Part shown: piece by piece, positions 38,790 through 47,896 of the stretch
Position numbering within the stretch: the stretch's first letter is position 1
Layout: each line of letters begins with the position of its first letter
NCBI GenBank assembly: GCA_021793235.1
Contig: JAJYTD010000033.1
Coordinates: forward strand, 1 to 47,896
Direction of reading: 5' to 3'
DNA from: Actinomycetes bacterium
Lineage (GTDB): Bacteria > Actinomycetota > Actinomycetes > Streptosporangiales > Streptosporangiaceae
DNA: 47,896 nt
Position numbers and translations under genes: made by a program
Notes under the pieces: model-generated
The model's database searches: none
Told to the model about the DNA's origin: nothing
What the model saw: only the letters and a program-made list of their open reading frames with translations

Positions 38790-39294
38790 TGGTGGCTCCT
38801 TCGCTTCCTGAGACGGGCCCTGTGCGCACAAGTGCCGCGAGACGGGGCCGCCTCAGGACACGGAGGGCTGGGTCGATGCGGGCGCCCTGCTTATCGGTGA
38901 ACGCTTCCGCCGGGCCGGTGGCCCGGCTCGGCCACCGCATCGATGGTTCGACCCTAGGGCCAGCGGTCGGCGGGCCGCGATATTGCCGGCCCCCCTCCTC
39001 GCGGGCCTGGTCTCCACCGGCGGGGGTGGTGCCCGCCCTACCACCGCCCGGCCGCGGGGCCGAGCGCGGGGAAACGCGGACTGTCCGCGGCCGACGAGTA
39101 CCGCCGAGATCCGTGCCCCGGCTGGGCGTCTGAATCGCAGAAACGGTCACCCGGGACGCGGATTCCCGGGTCGACGCGGTTAAAAAAGCCCGTTTGCTGA
39201 TAAGGCGGAATTCTTCGGTGCCCGGCAGTAGTGTGCTTATTACGGAGAAAATGGCCTCTGGTTGTAGCCGTGCTCAGATTCCGGGAGAAGCAGC
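38790..39294. other. Gap upstream of the KAP gene: repeat copy A, palindrome, AT-rich leader
   Basis: 505 bp without an intact gene. It holds the direct repeat (38846-39057), a 15-bp inverted repeat CGCGGAC-T-GTCCGCG (39075-39089), and a lower-GC leader (39180-39290) with words such as TTGCTGATAAGG. The leader probably contains the KAP promoter, but I cannot fix its boxes. Confidence 0.6.
38846..39057. repeat. Direct repeat copy A flanking the KAP-receiver gene
   Basis: 212 bp running from GGCCGCCTCAGGACACGG to CCCGGCCGCGG. It is almost identical to copy B (41251-41433) except for a 29-bp insertion (about 38953-38981, beginning CCTAGGGCC) and a handful of substitutions. The insertion puts a stop (WFDP then TAG) into a frame that stays open in copy B. 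Both copies are in the same orientation, 2,405 bp apart. Confidence 0.9.
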
Positions 39295-41082
39295 GTGGGT
39301 GATCCAGAGCAGTGGCGGTTCTCGTTGCTCAATGACGAGCCGGTCACCAATCCTGCGGAGGATTCCTTAGGGGGCGGGCGGGCCGCTCGCGAGCTGGCCG
39401 ACCTGATAGTCGCTTCACGAGGATCGACGCCGTTCACCTTGGCGGTCGATTCCGGATGGGGCACGGGGAAAAGCAGTCTCATGCGGCTGGTCGAGGCAGA
39501 GCTCGCAGAGACGGGCGACGTGTATACGGTCTGGTATAACGCGTGGACCTCGACGGGAGCGGACGCTCTGGAAGGAATCATCAAGTCCGTCCTGATGCGC
39601 CTTGATCGCCACGTTCTGCGCCGCGCCCTACAGAGGGTCTCTGACCGCCGGTCGGTGCTGAAAGCGGTACGCGCCTTGTCGACGCTGGCCGCCGGAGCGT
39701 TAGGGGTGGCCGGCCTGGTGGATGAGCTATGGAAGAGCCTGTCCGCGAGTCCGCAGGCACGCAATGAAATGAAAGACGCGATCCGTGACCTGACACAGGA
39801 GTGGGCCGAATCCGATGCGTTCTCGCCGCGGCGCCTGCTCGTGGTGTTCATCGATGACCTGGACCGCTGCCCGGAGGAGACGGTGCTCGCTGTGTGCGAG
39901 GCCGTCAAGGTCTACCTCGATGTTCCGGGACTCGCGTTCGTCATCGGCTGTGACCGGTCCGCGCTCGCTCCCGGGGGCTTCCTAGGCGATTTATCCCCCG
40001 CTGGGATGTCATTTATGGAGAAGATCTTCCAAACGAACTACCGGATCCCTGTGCCCGACGAAGAGGAAGCCGCAGAGTTCGTGCGCCGCCACCTCCATGA
40101 ATCAGGTGTGCATGCGCTTGTCAACGATGGGCTGGTCTCGCTGATCGCTGAGCGCTCAAACCGCAACCCTCGCCGAATAAAAAGGGTGATCAACGGGATT
40201 GTTCTCGAGGGCCGCCTGAACCCGGTTTGGCGAGGGAGTGATCGCGAGACAAACGATACCATGGTCAGGGTCCTGCTGCTCCAGTATCTTTACCCCGGAT
40301 TCTATCGGACTCTGGTCAGCGGGATAACTCAGGGTGACGCTCTTGGGGATTTCATACTATACCGCAAGGCCAGGCGTGTACTGCGCGGAATCGAACCGTA
40401 TCCTCATGACGACCATGAATTCCATAATTTCTTCGCCGAGCGTGATGTAACGGCACCCAATCCATCAAACAAAGAAGAGTGGGGGGCCATTCTAACCGAG
40501 CTGGAGTCGCGGCTTCCCAGTATCTTTCCTGCGCTGGCCGCCGATCGGGGGCTCGTTTCGCTGGTCAAAGACCTATCGGACCTATCGCGGCAGACAAAGG
40601 TGGCCGGGTTGCTGATGAAACGACCGTTCACGGGTGTCAGCAGTGTGGCCGACGAACAGAGTTCCCATCAACCAGAACAGGGCTGGTCCTTCGGAGATGG
40701 GTATGCCCCAGAACTAGGAAATCCGCTAGCAGGAAAATGCCTCCTCTGGATCGATGACAATCCAGCCAGCATCGACATCGAGGTTGAGAAGTTCCGTAGG
40801 AAAGGAGCTTTCTTGGTTGTGGTCACCAGTGTGCAGGAGGCGGAAGATCACCTTGCCGACAGAGATTGGGATCTTCTCATCTCTGACATTACCCGGTATG
40901 GAGACAGAGAGGCTGGATTCCGCGACTTGGAGCGTATCCGGGAGGCAGGCTACAAACGTGTCCCCGTGGTCTTCTACACCGGTGATGTAGATCGTTTTCG
41001 AGAGCGGCAGGCAAAGGACCTTGGAGCCATTGGCATAACCAATTCCCCCGGCCGCCTCCATCGGCTCGTGGCCGAGGCCTGA
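39295..41082 (+). CDS. KAP-family P-loop NTPase fused to a response-regulator receiver-like domain
   Basis: 595 residues from GTG 39295, preceded by GGGAGAAG. Residues 25-370 form a KAP NTPase: Walker A GWGTGKSS (54-61), Walker B VVFIDDLDR (D187, D188), then VIGCDRSAL and a C-terminal SNRNPRRIKRVIN sensor. A weakly hydrophobic stretch (ALSTLAAGALGVAGLV) sits where KAP proteins usually carry membrane spans. After a linker, residues about 480-592 form a receiver-like fold: acidic pair D487-D488, phosphoacceptor-like D531 (LLISDITR) and PVVFYTGD. The usual lysine is replaced in GITNSPG. GC is visibly lower than in the neighbours and three TTA codons (residues 25, 136, 233) occur, signs of recent acquisition. 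KAP proteins are linked to membrane-associated conflict systems; its function here is unknown. Confidence 0.85.
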   Translation: MGDPEQWRFSLLNDEPVTNPAEDSLGGGRAARELADLIVASRGSTPFTLAVDSGWGTGKSSLMRLVEAELAETGDVYTVWYNAWTSTGADALEGIIKSVLMRLDRHVLRRALQRVSDRRSVLKAVRALSTLAAGALGVAGLVDELWKSLSASPQARNEMKDAIRDLTQEWAESDAFSPRRLLVVFIDDLDRCPEETVLAVCEAVKVYLDVPGLAFVIGCDRSALAPGGFLGDLSPAGMSFMEKIFQTNYRIPVPDEEEAAEFVRRHLHESGVHALVNDGLVSLIAERSNRNPRRIKRVINGIVLEGRLNPVWRGSDRETNDTMVRVLLLQYLYPGFYRTLVSGITQGDALGDFILYRKARRVLRGIEPYPHDDHEFHNFFAERDVTAPNPSNKEEWGAILTELESRLPSIFPALAADRGLVSLVKDLSDLSRQTKVAGLLMKRPFTGVSSVADEQSSHQPEQGWSFGDGYAPELGNPLAGKCLLWIDDNPASIDIEVEKFRRKGAFLVVVTSVQEAEDHLADRDWDLLISDITRYGDREAGFRDLERIREAGYKRVPVVFYTGDVDRFRERQAKDLGAIGITNSPGRLHRLVAEA

Positions 41083-41583
41083 AGGATTCTCCCAATCACC
41101 CTCCAATGACGGCTGCCGCGGCGGGAAGAGCGCTCCTGGCGAGTGATTGTGTCCACCCATCACGGTTGCCCGCCAGGGCGGCCCGGCCAACTTGACGTTG
41201 CGCACCTCAAAACCCGCATGTGGACTTTCGGGGTTCTCGGGATACTCAGAGGCCGCCTCAGGACACGGAGGGCTGGGTCGATGCGGACGCCCTGCTTATC
41301 GGTGAACGCTTCCGCCGGGCCGGTGGCCCGGCTCGGCCACCGCATCGATGGTTCGACATTGTCGGCTCCCCTCCTCGCGGGCCTGGTCTCCACCGGCAGC
41401 GGTGGTGCCCGCCCTACCACCGCCCGGCCGCGGTCGATCGATGCGCCCTTGTCATCGGTGTCGAGGAGCGGTCCGGCTACGGCCCGGGCCGGCTGATTGC
41501 GGGCATCCGAGCGCAAGCGGCCGTTGGTAGGGGTGTCCCACCGCGGTGGTACGGGTAGTGCGTGCGGAGAGGGAGGGTGCGTG
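41083..41583. other. Gap downstream of the KAP gene with repeat copy B
   Basis: 501 bp. 41083-41250 shows nothing recognisable. 41251-41433 is repeat copy B. From 41220 to 41558 the plus strand keeps a 112-codon open frame through the repeat, containing CALVIGVEERSGYGPGRL after it. This looks like a degraded gene end but cannot be assigned safely. A ribosome-binding site (GGGAGGG) for the GrpB gene lies at about 41570. Confidence 0.5.
41251..41433. repeat. Direct repeat copy B flanking the KAP-receiver gene
   Basis: 183 bp, the shorter version of copy A without the 29-bp insertion. Recombination between the copies would remove the whole KAP gene together with one repeat. Confidence 0.9.
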
Positions 41584-42204: not shown

Positions 42205-43107
42205 TCAGGGTGCGGGCTGTGTCCGGGGCATCGGCGGGATCGGCTTGTCCTGCCGCGCAGCGCACCCGGCCGGGCGCGGGTCGCGGTCCTCGGCGACGCA
42301 CCGCAGCACCTCGTGGGCGGCGATCCGCCCCGCCGCGCGGAAGCCGTACTCACTGGAGTCGGTCTCGTGCCAGATGGCGTCGCGCAGTACCACGCGGGCG
42401 GCGAAGACGGGGCGGCCGCCGCCGCGAAGCTCCCACGCCTCGCGCACGCCGTCGCTGAACGCGGCGGCGAACTCGGCCGGCAGGGGCTCCCCGGGGTGCC
42501 GGCACACCTCGGGCAGGTCCGCGGCGAACGCGTAGTCCTCGACCGTGTCCTCGGGCAGCGGCTCGACATCGGCCCACACCACGGCGAACGGACCGGAGCA
42601 GGAGGTCTGCCTGATGTGGCGGACATAGACGCCGGAGACGGCGCGGGGCAGCGCGGGCGGCCTTCCCCGGGCCTCGCACCCGACCGGGCGCGGGTCGCGG
42701 TCCTCGGCCAGCGCCTGCACCGCCTCGCGAACGGCCAGGGCGGCCGCGCTATCGAGGACGGAGCAGAGCGAATCGGCCCCCTTTGCAGCGGGCGCCGTGG
42801 TGTGCCATTCGGCGCGCCGCAGTACCGCGCGCACGGCGAACACCTCCCGCAGGTACCCTTCCTCCTCCCACTCGCGGCCCAGTTGCCACCCCAGCCTCTC
42901 GATCGGCTTCCTCGGCAGCGCACGCTCCGGCGCGGGGGCGTCCACGGCGAACGTGTAGCCCCCGGCCGCATCCTCGGGCAGCGGCTCGAAATCGATGGCG
43001 AGCCTGACACCGGTGCGACCGGCGCCGACCTGCCTGCTGTGGTCCACGCGCACGCCGGCGAGCCTTCGGGGCCGGAGGGGCGGGTACCGGTGCCGATCGG
43101 CGGGCAT
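42205..43107 (-). CDS. Hypothetical protein of two tandem EF-G domain IV-like repeats
   Basis: 300 residues from ATG 43107 with AGGAG before it. Residues 16-145 and 156-285 are two copies of one domain: both contain FEPLPED or VEPLPED, then a GVREA-like helix, AVLRRAEWH or VVLRDAIWHETDSSE, and end AEDRDPRPxGC. The second copy closely follows elongation factor G domain IV (EPLP, GVREA, V.L.D..WH..DSSE..FR.AG). No GTPase domain is present. EF-G-like proteins carrying domain IV protect or remodel ribosomes, so a ribosome-binding role is possible but unproven. Confidence 0.75.
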   Translation of the reverse strand: MPADRHRYPPLRPRRLAGVRVDHSRQVGAGRTGVRLAIDFEPLPEDAAGGYTFAVDAPAPERALPRKPIERLGWQLGREWEEEGYLREVFAVRAVLRRAEWHTTAPAAKGADSLCSVLDSAAALAVREAVQALAEDRDPRPVGCEARGRPPALPRAVSGVYVRHIRQTSCSGPFAVVWADVEPLPEDTVEDYAFAADLPEVCRHPGEPLPAEFAAAFSDGVREAWELRGGGRPVFAARVVLRDAIWHETDSSEYGFRAAGRIAAHEVLRCVAEDRDPRPAGCAARQDKPIPPMPRTQPAP

Positions 43108-43424
43108 GGGAGCTCCTGTTCGGGACGGGGCAGGCGGGGCGGTGGGAGCCCGCCGGCGGATCTCCGGGCGGGCACACACCGACGCTAGCCGCCGCACCTT
43201 CCGGCGCCAACCGGTTTCCCGCCGCCCGCGCGACAACCGCCGATACCGCGCCGGCGGATACGAGCGGCGGGAGGCATATGCGGTGGGCCCCGTCCCCGCG
43301 TCGGCGGCGGCCGGTGCCGGCGCCTTCCGCGGTTCCCGCCAGGGCCCGGCCCGTGCGCGCGGGCCGGGCCCGGCTAGGATTGTCCTCCTCCTCGACCGCC
43401 CCGGCCCAGAAGCGGGAGCCCCCC
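43108..43424. other. Divergent intergenic region, EF-G-IV protein and DUF3592 protein
   Basis: 317 bp without a gene. TAGGAT (about 43375) may be a -10 box for the downstream gene. Nothing else is recognisable. Confidence 0.4.
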
Positions 43425-45193: not shown

Positions 45194-46038
45194 CGAACGT
45201 GCTCACCGCCCCCGGAACCGACCTGCGCGCCGCTTTGCTGACGGACGCGGCCGCCGGACTCGACCTGTTCCCCGGCATGGGCCTGGAAGAAGTGAACGCG
45301 CGCGCCGGACTGCAGACCCGCATCGACGCCAAGTACCTGCTCACCCCCGATGTCTGCGCCGCGTTCCTGGCCGGGCTCGCCGAACTCGGGGAGTGGTCGT
45401 GCCTGGAGATCGACGGACAGCGGCGGTTCCGCTACGCCTCGACCTACTTCGACACCCCCGACCTGCTCACCTACCGCCAGCACCGGCAGGGCCGGCGGCG
45501 CCGCTTCAAGATCCGCACCCGGCACTACGTCGACACCGGCTACTGCGCCTTCGAGGTCAAACTGAAAGGGGCCCGGGAAGCGACGGACAAGCAGCGCATC
45601 GACCACCCGCGCGCATACGCCGACCGCCTGACCGGCCAAGCGCGGCGCTTCCTGGAGGACGTCCTGCGCAGCACCTACCGCATGTCCGCGCCGGATTCGC
45701 TGGCCCCGGCCGCCACCACGAGCTACGTGCGCCACACCCTGGTCCAGCGCACCGGCGCCGCGCGCGTCACCTTCGACACCGGGCTGGTCTGCACCGCGCC
45801 GAGCGGGCAGCGGGTCGAGGCGCTGCCCCTGTGGGCGGTGGAGACGAAATCGGACGGCAGCGGGGGCGCCGCTGAGCGCCTCCTGTGGTCGCTGGGCGCG
45901 CGCCCACTGCGGATCAGCAAGTACTGCCTGGCCACCGCCGTCCTCAACCCCGGCCTCGCAGCCAACCCCTGGAACCGGGCGCTGCACCGGTGGTTCGGGG
46001 ATCGTGCCGGTCACCGGGACCGCCCAGGTCCACGGTGA
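45190..46038 (+). CDS. VTC-domain (polyphosphate polymerase-like) protein
   Basis: 282 residues from ATG 45190, in ATGA overlap with the DUF4956 gene. The VTC/CYTH-like tunnel fold is seen in TRIDAKYLLTPDV, RFRYASTYFDTPDLLTYRQHRQGRRRRFKIRTRHY, FEVKLKGAREATDKQRI and AVETKSDG. These are the basic and acidic tunnel residues expected of triphosphate-tunnel enzymes. In yeast VTC4 this domain makes polyphosphate from ATP; in bacteria the activity is inferred. Its last 95 bp overlap the 3' end of the convergent histidine kinase gene. Confidence 0.9.
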   Translation: MTNVLTAPGTDLRAALLTDAAAGLDLFPGMGLEEVNARAGLQTRIDAKYLLTPDVCAAFLAGLAELGEWSCLEIDGQRRFRYASTYFDTPDLLTYRQHRQGRRRRFKIRTRHYVDTGYCAFEVKLKGAREATDKQRIDHPRAYADRLTGQARRFLEDVLRSTYRMSAPDSLAPAATTSYVRHTLVQRTGAARVTFDTGLVCTAPSGQRVEALPLWAVETKSDGSGGAAERLLWSLGARPLRISKYCLATAVLNPGLAANPWNRALHRWFGDRAGHRDRPGPR

Positions 46039-47284
46039 TGACGGTCCCCGTTCCATCGGGACCCGTGCCCAACGCGATGCCGCCCCCGGAGGCCGCCGCC
46101 GTGCGCCGCACGATGTCCAATCCCAGCCCGGTGGACCCGCCGCCGCTGCGCCCCCGCTCCGCCAGGTCCTCGGCTGGCAGGCCCGGCCCCTCGTCGCCGA
46201 CCTCCACGACCGCGCCGCCTTCGGCGCGGGCCCGCAGCCGCACCGTGAACGGTGTTTCGTCGGGGGTGTGGGCGAACACGTTGCCCAGCAGCGCGTCCAT
46301 GGCCGCCGCCAGGTCGTCCGCGCCGACCCCGACCATGAGCGGCCCCGCCACCAGGTCGGTGCGGCACTCGCGCGCGGTCTCCTCGGCCAGTACGGACCAG
46401 AACTCGATGCGTTCGGCGACCACCGCCGCAGCATCGCACGAGGGGTCGCCGCGGGCGGGGCTACGGGCGGCGTTGATGGCCGCGTCGACGGCGCGCTGCA
46501 CCCCATCGGCGGCCGACTCGATGGTTTCGCGCTCGTGGGGGTCGCTGAGCGCTTCGGCCTCCAGGCGCAGCGTTGTGACCGGGGTGCGCAGCCGGTGGGA
46601 GAGGTCGGCGACGCGTTCCCGCTCGGCCACGAGCAGATCCTGGATGCGCGAAGCCAGACCGTTCAGCGCGGCCCCGACCTCCCGCAGCTCAGCCGGGCCG
46701 CTCACCTGCGCCCGCGCCTCCAGGTCGCCGCCTGCCAGCCGGTTGGCCACCCGGCTCAGCTCCGCCAGGGGCACCAGCAGTAGGCGGGCGAGCCGGTCGG
46801 CGAGCAGGAGCCCGAACCCGAGCAGGGCCAACCCCAGCACACCCAGGATGAGCCACGCACGGCCCACGTCCTCGGTGAGGTCGCTGTCGGCGACGTAGGC
46901 GCGGATGACCGCGGTCCCCTCCGGCAGCCCCTGCACCCCGAACAGGATCTCCCGGCCGCCCGGCGCCTCGGCGGTGATGCTGCGCCCGGTCGCGGCCAGC
47001 TCCACCGCGTCCGAGCGCGGCGCGTCAGCGCCCAGGACGGACCCGTCGGGCCAGAACACGGTGATCGGGTGGTCGGACACGGCGTTGAGCCGCTCGACCG
47101 AGGCCCGCACCGTGTCCCGGTCGGCGGTGGCCACAACGGCCGACAGTGCTTCGGCGTCCTGGGCGGCCTCGGTGACCACCCGGTCGCCGGCCACCTCCCG
47201 CAGCAGCAGCGCCAGCGGAACAGAGAACGCGATGAAGACCAGCGTCACCGTGGCCGCGACCAGCATCGTCAGGCGCCGCCTCAT
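45944..47284 (-). CDS. Sensor histidine kinase
   Basis: 446 residues from ATG 47284, which overlaps the response-regulator stop (ATGA). Two membrane spans (about residues 5-30 and 150-170) enclose an extracellular sensor region. HAMP (LLVPLAELSRVANRLAGGDLEARAQV), a dimerisation/phosphorylation helix with H230 (ADLSHRLRTPVTTLRLEAEAL) and the ATPase boxes (N: GNVFAHT; G: GDEGPGLP and GSTGLGLDIVRRTA) follow. The C-terminal 25 residues run antisense through the end of the VTC gene. It phosphorylates the adjacent OmpR-type regulator in response to an unknown envelope signal. Confidence 0.93.
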   Translation of the reverse strand: MRRRLTMLVAATVTLVFIAFSVPLALLLREVAGDRVVTEAAQDAEALSAVVATADRDTVRASVERLNAVSDHPITVFWPDGSVLGADAPRSDAVELAATGRSITAEAPGGREILFGVQGLPEGTAVIRAYVADSDLTEDVGRAWLILGVLGLALLGFGLLLADRLARLLLVPLAELSRVANRLAGGDLEARAQVSGPAELREVGAALNGLASRIQDLLVAERERVADLSHRLRTPVTTLRLEAEALSDPHERETIESAADGVQRAVDAAINAARSPARGDPSCDAAAVVAERIEFWSVLAEETARECRTDLVAGPLMVGVGADDLAAAMDALLGNVFAHTPDETPFTVRLRARAEGGAVVEVGDEGPGLPAEDLAERGRSGGGSTGLGLDIVRRTAAASGGGIALGTGPDGTGTVITVDLGGPGDRHDPRTTGAAPGSRGWLRGRG

Positions 47285-47896
47285 GGCCGCCCGCCCCCCG
47301 GGCCGCTGTACTGCGCCGACTGCGCGTCGGGGTCCACCAGCTTGATGCCGACCCCGCGGACCGTGTGCAGAAAGCGCGGCCGCTGCGCGGTCTCGCCCAG
47401 TTTGCGGCGCAGCCACGCGACGTGGACGTCGACCGTCTTGTCCGCGCCCCCGTAGGGGGCGCCCCACACGTCGGCGAGCAGCTGCCGCTTGGAGACCACG
47501 CTGCCCGCGTTCGACGCCAGGTAGTAGAGGAGGTCGAACTCCTTGGGGCTCAGCTCCAAGCGCTGCCCGGCGAGCCGGGCCTCACGGCTGCGGGGGTCGA
47601 TCCACAGGGCCTCGACGGTGATGCTCGGGTCGGCGGCGGCGTTGGCGGAGGCCCGCCGCATCACCGCCCGGGCGCGCGCGTCCAGTTGCCGGGCGGTGAA
47701 CGGCTTGGTGACATAGTCGTCGGCGCCCGCGTTGAGCACGCGGACGATCTCGTTCTCGTCATCGCGCGCGGTGGCGACGATCACCGGGACGTCGCTGACT
47801 CCGCGCAGCATCCGCAGCATCTCGACGCCGTCCAGGTCGGGCAGGCCCAGGTCCAATATGATCAGGTCCGGAGCGCCGTCGACGCCCCAGCCTTGT
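47281..47896 (-). CDS. OmpR-family response regulator (5' end outside window)
   Basis: The frame is open through the right edge. The visible part begins in the receiver domain at QGWGVDGAPDLIILDLGLPDLDG, whose aspartate (ILDLGLP) is the phosphorylation site. It continues with VIVATARDDENE, GADDYVTKPF (conserved lysine present) and a winged-helix DNA-binding domain (LSPKEFDLLYYLASNAGSVVSKRQLLADVWG, KTVDVHVAWLRRKLGE, TVRGVGIKL). Only about the first 45 residues are missing. It is the first gene of a two-gene operon with the kinase. The phased repeats upstream of the DUF4956 operon suit this class. Confidence 0.94.
   Translation of the reverse strand, partial: QGWGVDGAPDLIILDLGLPDLDGVEMLRMLRGVSDVPVIVATARDDENEIVRVLNAGADDYVTKPFTARQLDARARAVMRRASANAAADPSITVEALWIDPRSREARLAGQRLELSPKEFDLLYYLASNAGSVVSKRQLLADVWGAPYGGADKTVDVHVAWLRRKLGETAQRPRFLHTVRGVGIKLVDPDAQSAQYSGPGGGRP

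What the first reader, a model, noticed from the sequence alone, without database searches (positions are those of the whole stretch)
39295..41082. KAP P-loop NTPase fused to a C-terminal receiver-like domain
The sequence shows a complete KAP NTPase (Walker A 54-61, Walker B with D187/D188) joined to a receiver-like domain with acidic pair D487-D488, D531 and a threonine/serine position, but without the conserved lysine. KAP NTPases are known from membrane-associated, often plasmid- or island-borne genes, and several groups link them to phage defence. Fusion to a receiver-type domain is not an arrangement I know as described. Inference: the receiver-like domain may act as a signal-input or partner-binding module of a single-gene conflict system rather than as a two-component output.
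Basis: partly seen in the sequence, partly recalled or inferred. Interest (0 to 1): 0.75.

Follow-up and report, generated by a model that had tools for sequence, protein, structure and literature searches.

The report
KAP ATPase fused to lysine-less receiver
A bacterial gene, apparently acquired from elsewhere, joins a KAP-type ATPase to a signal-receiver domain that lacks a key lysine; relatives with the same join occur in other actinobacteria, but what the protein does has not been tested.

Summary
ORF 39295-41082(+) encodes 595 aa: a KAP NTPase (Pfam E 3.5e-30) and a C-terminal receiver (REC; 28.7 bits, just under Pfam's 30.2). AlphaFold2 and Foldseek show a receiver fold (TM 0.84/0.82 to RR468, 5uht). 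The fusion recurs: 31 of 33 homologous loci carry REC, two of them in tandem. In 30 aligned proteins (window included) D487 and D531 are invariant, D488 is 29/30, the conserved Lys is absent (0/30) and an Arg three residues after D531 is invariant. Seven of eight receivers from outside the family share the Arg and lack Lys; five are short proteins on viral contigs. The window gene looks acquired (GC 60% against about 72%; flanking 0.2-kb direct repeats). But 25 of 33 homologues share one chromosomal site with genome-like GC, and neighbour scans showed no defence island. Best reading: a single-gene, receiver-gated KAP ATPase switch, probably a conflict or stress module; phage defence is possible, unproven. 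In ten searches of an open-access library I saw no KAP-REC fusion described. New variant of a known kind.

The parts
39295..41082 (+). KAP-REC gene, 595 aa, GTG start
   Evidence: ORF list; GC 59.6%, GC3 0.674 against a minimum of 0.875 among 36 genes called in the window by my caller, which favours high GC3
39283..39289 (+). ribosome-binding-like GGGAGAA, 5 nt before the GTG
   Evidence: read by eye from the sequence
39385..40203 (+). KAP NTPase domain, residues 31-303
   Evidence: Pfam PF07693 E 3.5e-30; G56, G58, K59, S60, D187, D188, D190, R191, N291, P292, R293, R294 in 30 of 30
39454..39474 (+). Walker A GWGTGKS, residues 54-60
   Evidence: sequence; K59 and S60 30/30
39835..39870 (+). 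Walker B strand LLVVFIDDLDRC, residues 181-192
   Evidence: D187 and D188 30/30
39664..39720 (+). weakly hydrophobic segment between Walker A and B, residues 124-142; borderline for a membrane helix
   Evidence: Kyte-Doolittle 19-residue maximum 1.65; modelled as short helices 123-135 and 138-149
40204..40623 (+). helical region after the KAP domain, residues 304-443
   Evidence: AlphaFold2 model; mean pairwise identity 45% in the family
40624..40731 (+). flexible linker, residues 444-479; 16 to 147 residues in the 30 aligned proteins
   Evidence: pLDDT under 50 over 444-474; lengths
40732..41079 (+). Lys-less receiver domain, residues 480-595 (D487, D488, D531, R534, T562; S584 in place of Lys)
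38846..39057 (.). left direct repeat flanking the gene (212 bp)
   Evidence: in the genome only the two flanking copies plus one 38-bp partial match at E up to 0.001
41251..41433 (.). right direct repeat (183 bp; one 29-bp stretch missing, the two aligned blocks 99% and 94% alike)

Best explanation
It is a single-gene, receiver-gated KAP ATPase. Shown by computation: the two domains, the receiver fold, intact NTPase motifs, the conserved acidic pocket, loss of the receiver Lys, an invariant Arg three residues after the acceptor Asp, recurrence of the fusion, and a window copy with marks of acquisition. Inferred: the receiver is the input module. Its acidic pocket binds Mg2+ with a phosphoryl donor or a phosphate-bearing ligand without the Lys switch, possibly using the Arg, and by docking on or releasing the KAP part through the flexible linker it turns the ATPase (a probable oligomeric AAA-like switch) on or off. 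The output would be an action of the KAP part itself on membrane or nucleic acid. The likeliest setting is a conflict or stress response; anti-phage action is possible but not shown.
For: Architecture. Recurrence: REC in 31 of 33 homologous loci, two RECs in L078 and L080 (three of the 31, L002, L086 and L087, and the window were in the profile used; Pfam agrees for L064, L078, L080). Pocket in 30 aligned proteins, window included (L003, L078, L080, L085 not in this alignment): D487 30, D488 29, D531 30, R534 30, Lys 0. Same Arg without Lys in 7 of 8 receivers from outside the family; the eighth (L016) and two response-regulator controls keep Lys and lack the Arg. REC varies more than KAP (mean pairwise identity 44% against 68%, 435 pairs). 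No gene cluster follows KAP-REC to its different sites, save a HATPase_c_2 protein in 3 of 33 loci. Mobility marks: low GC in window, L002, L003, L061, L086, L087; repeats round the window gene; an integrase 3' end on both sides of the gene in L086; a TrwC relaxase 6.5 kb from L002's copy and a transposase 2.2 kb from L061's. Receivers without histidine kinases have been proposed as nucleotide-responsive switches in conflict systems (PMC8195603, passage).
Against: No ligand, phosphorylation, ATPase or phage assay exists to my knowledge. The full-length model is weak on domain arrangement (pTM 0.62), so docking of REC on KAP is not shown. The helical middle part varies as much as REC (45%), so fast change is not special to the receiver. 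25 of 33 homologues sit at one chromosomal site beside amino-acid metabolism genes, which fits an ordinary regulator as well. Two off-site copies, L057 and L077, have GC like their surroundings. One homologue (L003) has no REC but a Clp_N/AAA part in front, so REC is not obligatory in this KAP clade. The Thr is T or S in only 20 of 30. A HATPase_c_2 protein lies 140 nt upstream of KAP-REC in L077, so a kinase-like partner is not excluded there.
Confidence: 0.5

Rival explanations
1. Single-gene anti-phage system: the KAP part is a membrane- or nucleic-acid-acting effector like PifA, QatA or the PADLOC candidate PDC-S20, and REC senses an infection signal.
For: PADLOC matches of the KAP part: QatA 7e-25, PifA 1.6e-24, PDC-S20 3.4e-20. 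KAP is cited as implicated in anti-phage immunity (PMC8195603 and PMC10853773, passages). Mobile or acquired copies. Same receiver subclass on viral contigs.
Against: The matches cover only the KAP part; the QatA NCBIfam score is 98 against a cut-off of 600. No defence island seen. Most copies share one chromosomal site. The hydrophobic segment is borderline in the window protein.
Confidence: 0.3
2. Resident stress or development regulator of actinobacteria: a chromosomal ATPase whose receiver is phosphorylated by orphan kinases or small phosphodonors, occasionally carried by mobile DNA.
For: 25 of 33 loci at one site with genome-like GC; 18 of 18 non-carriers tested keep the neighbouring aminotransferase, so the gene is an optional resident; acidic pocket retained.
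Against: Found in only 29 of 392 genomes of the main genus; Lys lost in all 30; six of eight off-site copies, window included, have low GC.
Confidence: 0.35
3. The REC part is a degenerate scaffold that only binds a partner or mediates oligomerisation, with no ligand.
For: Lys 0/30, Thr or Ser lost in 10 of 30; REC varies more than KAP.
Against: D487, D531 and R534 are in 30 of 30 and in 7 of 8 outside receivers, which a mere scaffold would not need.
Confidence: 0.2
4. The fusion is a gene-calling or assembly artefact.
For: The Pfam receiver score of the window protein alone is just below the cut-off.
Against: Same continuous fusion in 31 of 33 separate loci; 60% identity over the whole length with a protein of Streptomyces sp. 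HPF1205.
Confidence: 0.01

Closest known systems
QatA (ATPase of the Qat anti-phage system; PADLOC PDLC02209, NCBIfam NF041923)
   Same: KAP-type NTPase part; E 7e-25 and 4.6e-28
   Different: 98.2 bits against a cut-off of 600; the best stretches lie in the KAP part. I did not search the window for the QatB, QatC and QatD partners (names recalled)
PifA (PADLOC PDLC02361)
   Same: KAP part, E 1.6e-24 over residues 12-258
   Different: 720-position model matched only at 6-260; here a receiver follows
PDC-S20 (PADLOC candidate; matched models of 446 to 464 positions)
   Same: KAP part, E 3.4e-20
   Different: Best match covers residues 22-258 only
Receivers without histidine kinase in VMAP, iSTAND2 and TERNS3 conflict systems (PMC8195603, passage; also PMC7159879, passage)
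   Same: REC in a conflict setting without a kinase, proposed as a nucleotide-responsive switch
   Different: Those are effectors of ternary systems; the passages name no KAP-REC fusion
Membrane helix with a WP signature fused to C-terminal receivers (PMC3710099, passage)
   Same: Three of the viral-contig proteins found here (L144, L146, L147) show a W-P in their hydrophobic stretch and a C-terminal REC
   Different: Output is a membrane helix, not a KAP ATPase; the passage says nothing of the Lys or Arg
cREC, cyclic-phosphate-processing receiver (PF20274; PMC7824862 and PMC9503650, passages)
   Same: Receiver-like domain with conserved aspartates, described as never found with a histidine kinase
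   Different: The window protein gives no PF20274 match at E up to 1; the E. coli hydrophobic REC protein gives only E 0.0046
RssB, PorX and RR468 receivers
   Same: Fold neighbours of the REC model
   Different: Response regulators with other or no output domains (recalled)

Membership tests
KAP P-loop NTPases | KAP_NTPase profile above gathering score | tested here: met
   105.7 bits against a cut-off of 20
KAP P-loop NTPases | Walker A, DDLDR Walker B and NPRRIKR stretch | tested here: met
   invariant or nearly so in 30 proteins
KAP P-loop NTPases | transmembrane segments inserted in the NTPase domain (recalled as typical of many members) | tested here: inconclusive
   window maximum 1.65; 11 of 30 proteins have no 19-residue window at 1.6 or above; in L081-L084 the best window lies elsewhere; L076 and L077 reach 2.11 and 2.33 in this segment
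Receiver (REC) domain | (beta-alpha)5 receiver fold | tested here: met
   pLDDT 96.4 and strand-helix order; Foldseek TM 0.84/0.82 to 5uht_B
Receiver (REC) domain | acidic pair and phospho-acceptor Asp | tested here: met
   D487 30/30, D488 29/30, D531 30/30
Canonical two-component response regulator | conserved Lys of the switch | tested here: not met
   0 of 30; S 20, D 6, G 3, N 1
Canonical two-component response regulator | cognate histidine kinase next to the gene | tested here: inconclusive
   none next to the window gene; a HisKA/HATPase kinase and a regulator with Trans_reg_C at 45947-47895 are about 4.9 kb away. Across loci no kinase-like cluster recurs except HATPase_c_2 in 3 of 33, adjacent only in L077. 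Orphan kinases elsewhere cannot be excluded
Qat system | QatA equivalog score | tested here: not met
   98.2 against 600
Anti-phage defence system | location in defence islands | tested here: not met
   102 neighbours scanned; 40 PADLOC families matched, 25 shown. Those traced (10 proteins rescanned) are Ser/Thr kinases and ABC-type ATPases plus a RecD-like helicase in L002; the four members matching mad2 were not traced
Anti-phage defence system | protection against phage | not testable with these tools
   needs plating assays
cREC domain | PF20274 match | tested here: not met
   not listed at E up to 1 for the window protein

The most novel reading that the evidence does not exclude
There is a receiver subclass, with the Asp pocket kept, the Lys lost and an Arg three residues after the acceptor Asp, that works without histidine kinases as a ligand-sensing switch and is plugged onto different outputs: KAP ATPases (single or tandem REC), short membrane proteins on viral contigs, and SAV_2336/MoxR conflict systems. 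KAP-REC would then be a one-gene immune or stress ATPase gated by a phosphate-bearing small molecule.
Probability: 0.2. Interest if true: 0.75.

Novelty: new variant of a known kind. Interest (0 to 1): 0.5.

Why it matters
KAP NTPases recur in phage-defence models, but how they are switched on is, to my knowledge, unclear. A KAP ATPase with a receiver covalently attached, in about 600 residues and with no evident partner, would let the input be studied directly by mutating a few pocket residues. The shared Arg-without-Lys pattern links it to putative membrane proteins on viral contigs and to a ternary conflict locus, so a ligand found for one could explain several.

Tried and rejected
Artefact or chance: rejected, since 31 of 33 homologous loci carry the same fusion. 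Ordinary response regulator: thought unlikely on the missing Lys and no recurring adjacent kinase. Qat membership: rejected on score. REC in more distant KAP proteins: the family REC profile found none at E 0.01 in frames of 100 aa or more in 17 KAP-bearing loci, 8 from the family search and 9 from viral contigs; fetched flanks were short in some (L026 ends in the gene), so this is not proof of absence. Empty site for the window: no result, since 0 of 14 fetched loci with the left-neighbour acyltransferase show GrpB in the fetched flank of about 1.5 kb (58 of 120 genomes, own included, had such a protein). Repeat origin: no match among plasmids. tRNA: none found by ARAGORN in L057, L061, L077, L086, L087, L002 or the window; L003 has a tRNA-Met about 0.6 kb before the frame. 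Phage and plasmid collections: no place covers 80% of the query, phages 45% at best. Papers: ten searches. Of the listed papers I looked for terms in nine (passages only) and saw no KAP-REC fusion; the rest of the listings were not opened. Burroughs and Aravind 2020, cited there, is not held under the DOI I tried.

Results that count against tidy readings: the family profile also scores L016, an ordinary receiver with Lys (E 1.9e-12), so a profile hit alone does not mark the subclass; in L140 an Arg stands in the Lys column. The outside receivers were found by likeness to this family (L015 and L016 by tblastn), though the tested Arg was not in the search patterns, so their agreement may be common descent. 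Dropped rows: one control (canon_window35) was mistranslated and is not counted; L014 (its gene is the same as in L137) and L141-L143 look like near-copies of L140 and were left out.

Full report
What is there. ORF 39295-41082 on the plus strand encodes 595 residues. Pfam finds KAP_NTPase at 31-303 (E 3.5e-30) and Response_reg at 484-592 (E 1.6e-6; 28.7 bits, gathering score 30.2). As the receiver score is marginal, I tested it in other ways. A profile of 30 family members hits PDB receivers over the REC part, best CheY at E 3.2e-10; the best stretches of all 60 rows shown (of 68) lie there. AlphaFold2 on the full protein gives mean pLDDT 79, pTM 0.62, with the REC blocks at about 88-96. REC alone gives pLDDT 96.4, pTM 0.90 and the strand-helix order of a receiver. 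Foldseek's listed matches for it are receivers, e.g. 5uht_B (RR468) TM 0.84/0.82 and RssB 7lcm 0.81/0.75. For the full model the best Foldseek matches are ORC/Cdc6 AAA proteins (E 1.1e-6), with the RdrA ring at 5e-5, all with rmsd above 10 A, so they say little beyond an AAA-like NTPase.

The fusion recurs. A full-length relative at 60% identity is in Streptomyces sp. HPF1205. In the window's own family 11 of 341 genomes matched at E 1e-20; three of these (own, G131, G261) align over nearly the whole length. In a class-wide draw 4 of 394 matched at 1e-40, in genus g85 29 of 392, in a phylum-wide draw 2 of 346 at 1e-35. Only three candidates per genome were scored in these searches, so counts are lower bounds. 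g85 is unnamed; that it is Streptomyces is my inference. I examined 33 homologous loci (L002, L003, L057-L087): 31 carry REC by a profile made from the window and three of them; two of the 31 (L078, L080) carry two RECs; two lack it (L003, and L085, whose frame is broken).

Receiver chemistry. In 30 aligned proteins D487 is 30/30, D488 29/30, D531 30/30, R534 30/30; T562 is T or S in 20; the Lys position is S 20, D 6, G 3, N 1 and never Lys. Of eight receivers from outside the family, seven have the Arg and no Lys: L140 (its near-copies lie in E. coli chromosomes), four more on viral contigs (L144-L147), a large protein on a viral contig (L148) and a SAV_2336-type protein beside MoxR (L015). 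The eighth, L016, follows a kinase-like ATPase stretch (by eye), keeps Lys and lacks the Arg, like two response-regulator controls. L140, L144, L145 and L146 have hydrophobic stretches of 2.29 to 2.71 and L147 one of 1.63, which suggests membrane proteins. The role of the Arg is inference.

Context. My neighbour calls (a simple GC-codon gene caller) place 25 of 33 homologues beside the same divergent aminotransferase, at most one called ORF apart; 21 of these, and L085, also have the amidohydrolase. Other genes there match D-serine-dehydratase/alanine-racemase, PfkB, IclR and RidA-type profiles. These copies have GC like their surroundings. All 18 non-carriers tested keep the aminotransferase; in eight of them the amidohydrolase or the trypsin-like gene that follows KAP-REC in carriers is seen in the 1.5 kb beyond it, so the gene is optional at this site. 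Seven homologues (L002, L003, L057, L061, L077, L086, L087) and the window lie elsewhere; L085 keeps the right flank of the common site. Of these eight, six have low GC: window 59.6%, L002 61.1, L003 57.4, L061 65.8, L086 59.4, L087 64.2; L057 and L077 do not. In L086 the 3' end of a phage-integrase gene stands on both sides of KAP-REC (78 nt, 88% alike). L002 lies 6.5 kb from a TrwC relaxase and L061 2.2 kb from a transposase. In a tree of 34 proteins the window groups with L086, and these with L002, L057 and L077, all off the common site, both at 98/99; L086 is a long branch of odd composition.

The window insert. Direct repeats of 212 and 183 bp flank the gene and were found nowhere else in the genome save a 38-bp piece. 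Integration by recombination or a local duplication could leave this; I cannot say which.

Defence link. The KAP part matches QatA, PifA and PDC-S20 models, but the curated QatA cut-off is far off. Of 127 listed neighbour proteins of the seven off-site loci and the window I gave 102 to a PADLOC scan: 40 families matched, 25 shown. Rescanning ten of them traced the PD-T4-6 and mad6 matches to two ordinary-looking Ser/Thr kinases and the mad3 and AriA matches to ABC-type ATPases (by eye); a helicase beside the TrwC gene matches RecD models. I did not trace the four mad2 matches. So I see no defence island, with that reserve.

Literature, passages only. Receivers without histidine kinases in ternary conflict systems, proposed as nucleotide-responsive switches, and KAP in place of STAND NTPases (PMC8195603); a receiver among vWA-linked effectors (PMC7159879); KAP beside Orc/Cdc6 genes in counter-invader loci (PMC10853773); a PYD/CARD-coil-REC protein in CoCoNuT systems (PMC11090510); cREC domains (PMC7824862, PMC9503650); REC among domains of predicted defence systems (PMC13092281, legend); a WP membrane helix fused to receivers (PMC3710099). 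PMC13194489 only holds both words apart. None of these passages describes KAP fused to REC.

Conclusion. Shown: architecture, fold, motif conservation, recurrence, an acquired-looking window copy. Inferred: REC as input and KAP as output. Open: ligand, activity, biological role.

Noticed in passing
L003:6387-9350: Plasmid of Streptomyces sp. NBC_00829: one 988-aa frame joins two Clp_N stretches, a ClpC-like AAA and a UVR motif to a KAP of this clade, without REC. The plasmid table lists no gene there; that table leaves out pseudogenes, so its status is unsure.
   Followed up: partly
L137:4045-6789 (E. coli) and L140-L143: An AAA_15/AAA_21 ATPase, an integrase-core fragment and a hydrophobic REC protein of the same receiver type lie between yfgI and guaA; the REC gene is in 26 of 5426 E. 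coli genomes and on IMG/VR contigs.
   Followed up: partly
L015:7285-11814: Rhizobium phaseoli plasmid: SAV_2336-related protein with a REC and a SLOG-like domain, directly after a MoxR ATPase and near a trypsin-like peptidase.
   Followed up: partly
L148:1782-5414: 1211-aa protein on a viral contig with a C-terminal REC of this type.
   Followed up: partly
L077:7984-8430: HATPase_c_2 protein 140 nt upstream of KAP-REC; relatives also near KAP-REC in L002 and, some 6 kb off, in L085.
   Followed up: partly
window 42205-43236 (-): 343-aa frame with an EF-G domain IV match (E 2.8e-7) and two pairs of repeated DNA stretches inside.
   Followed up: no
genus g85, site beside the aminotransferase: In several of 11 non-carriers looked at, the site holds other, differing frames, which suggests a variable spot.
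   Followed up: partly
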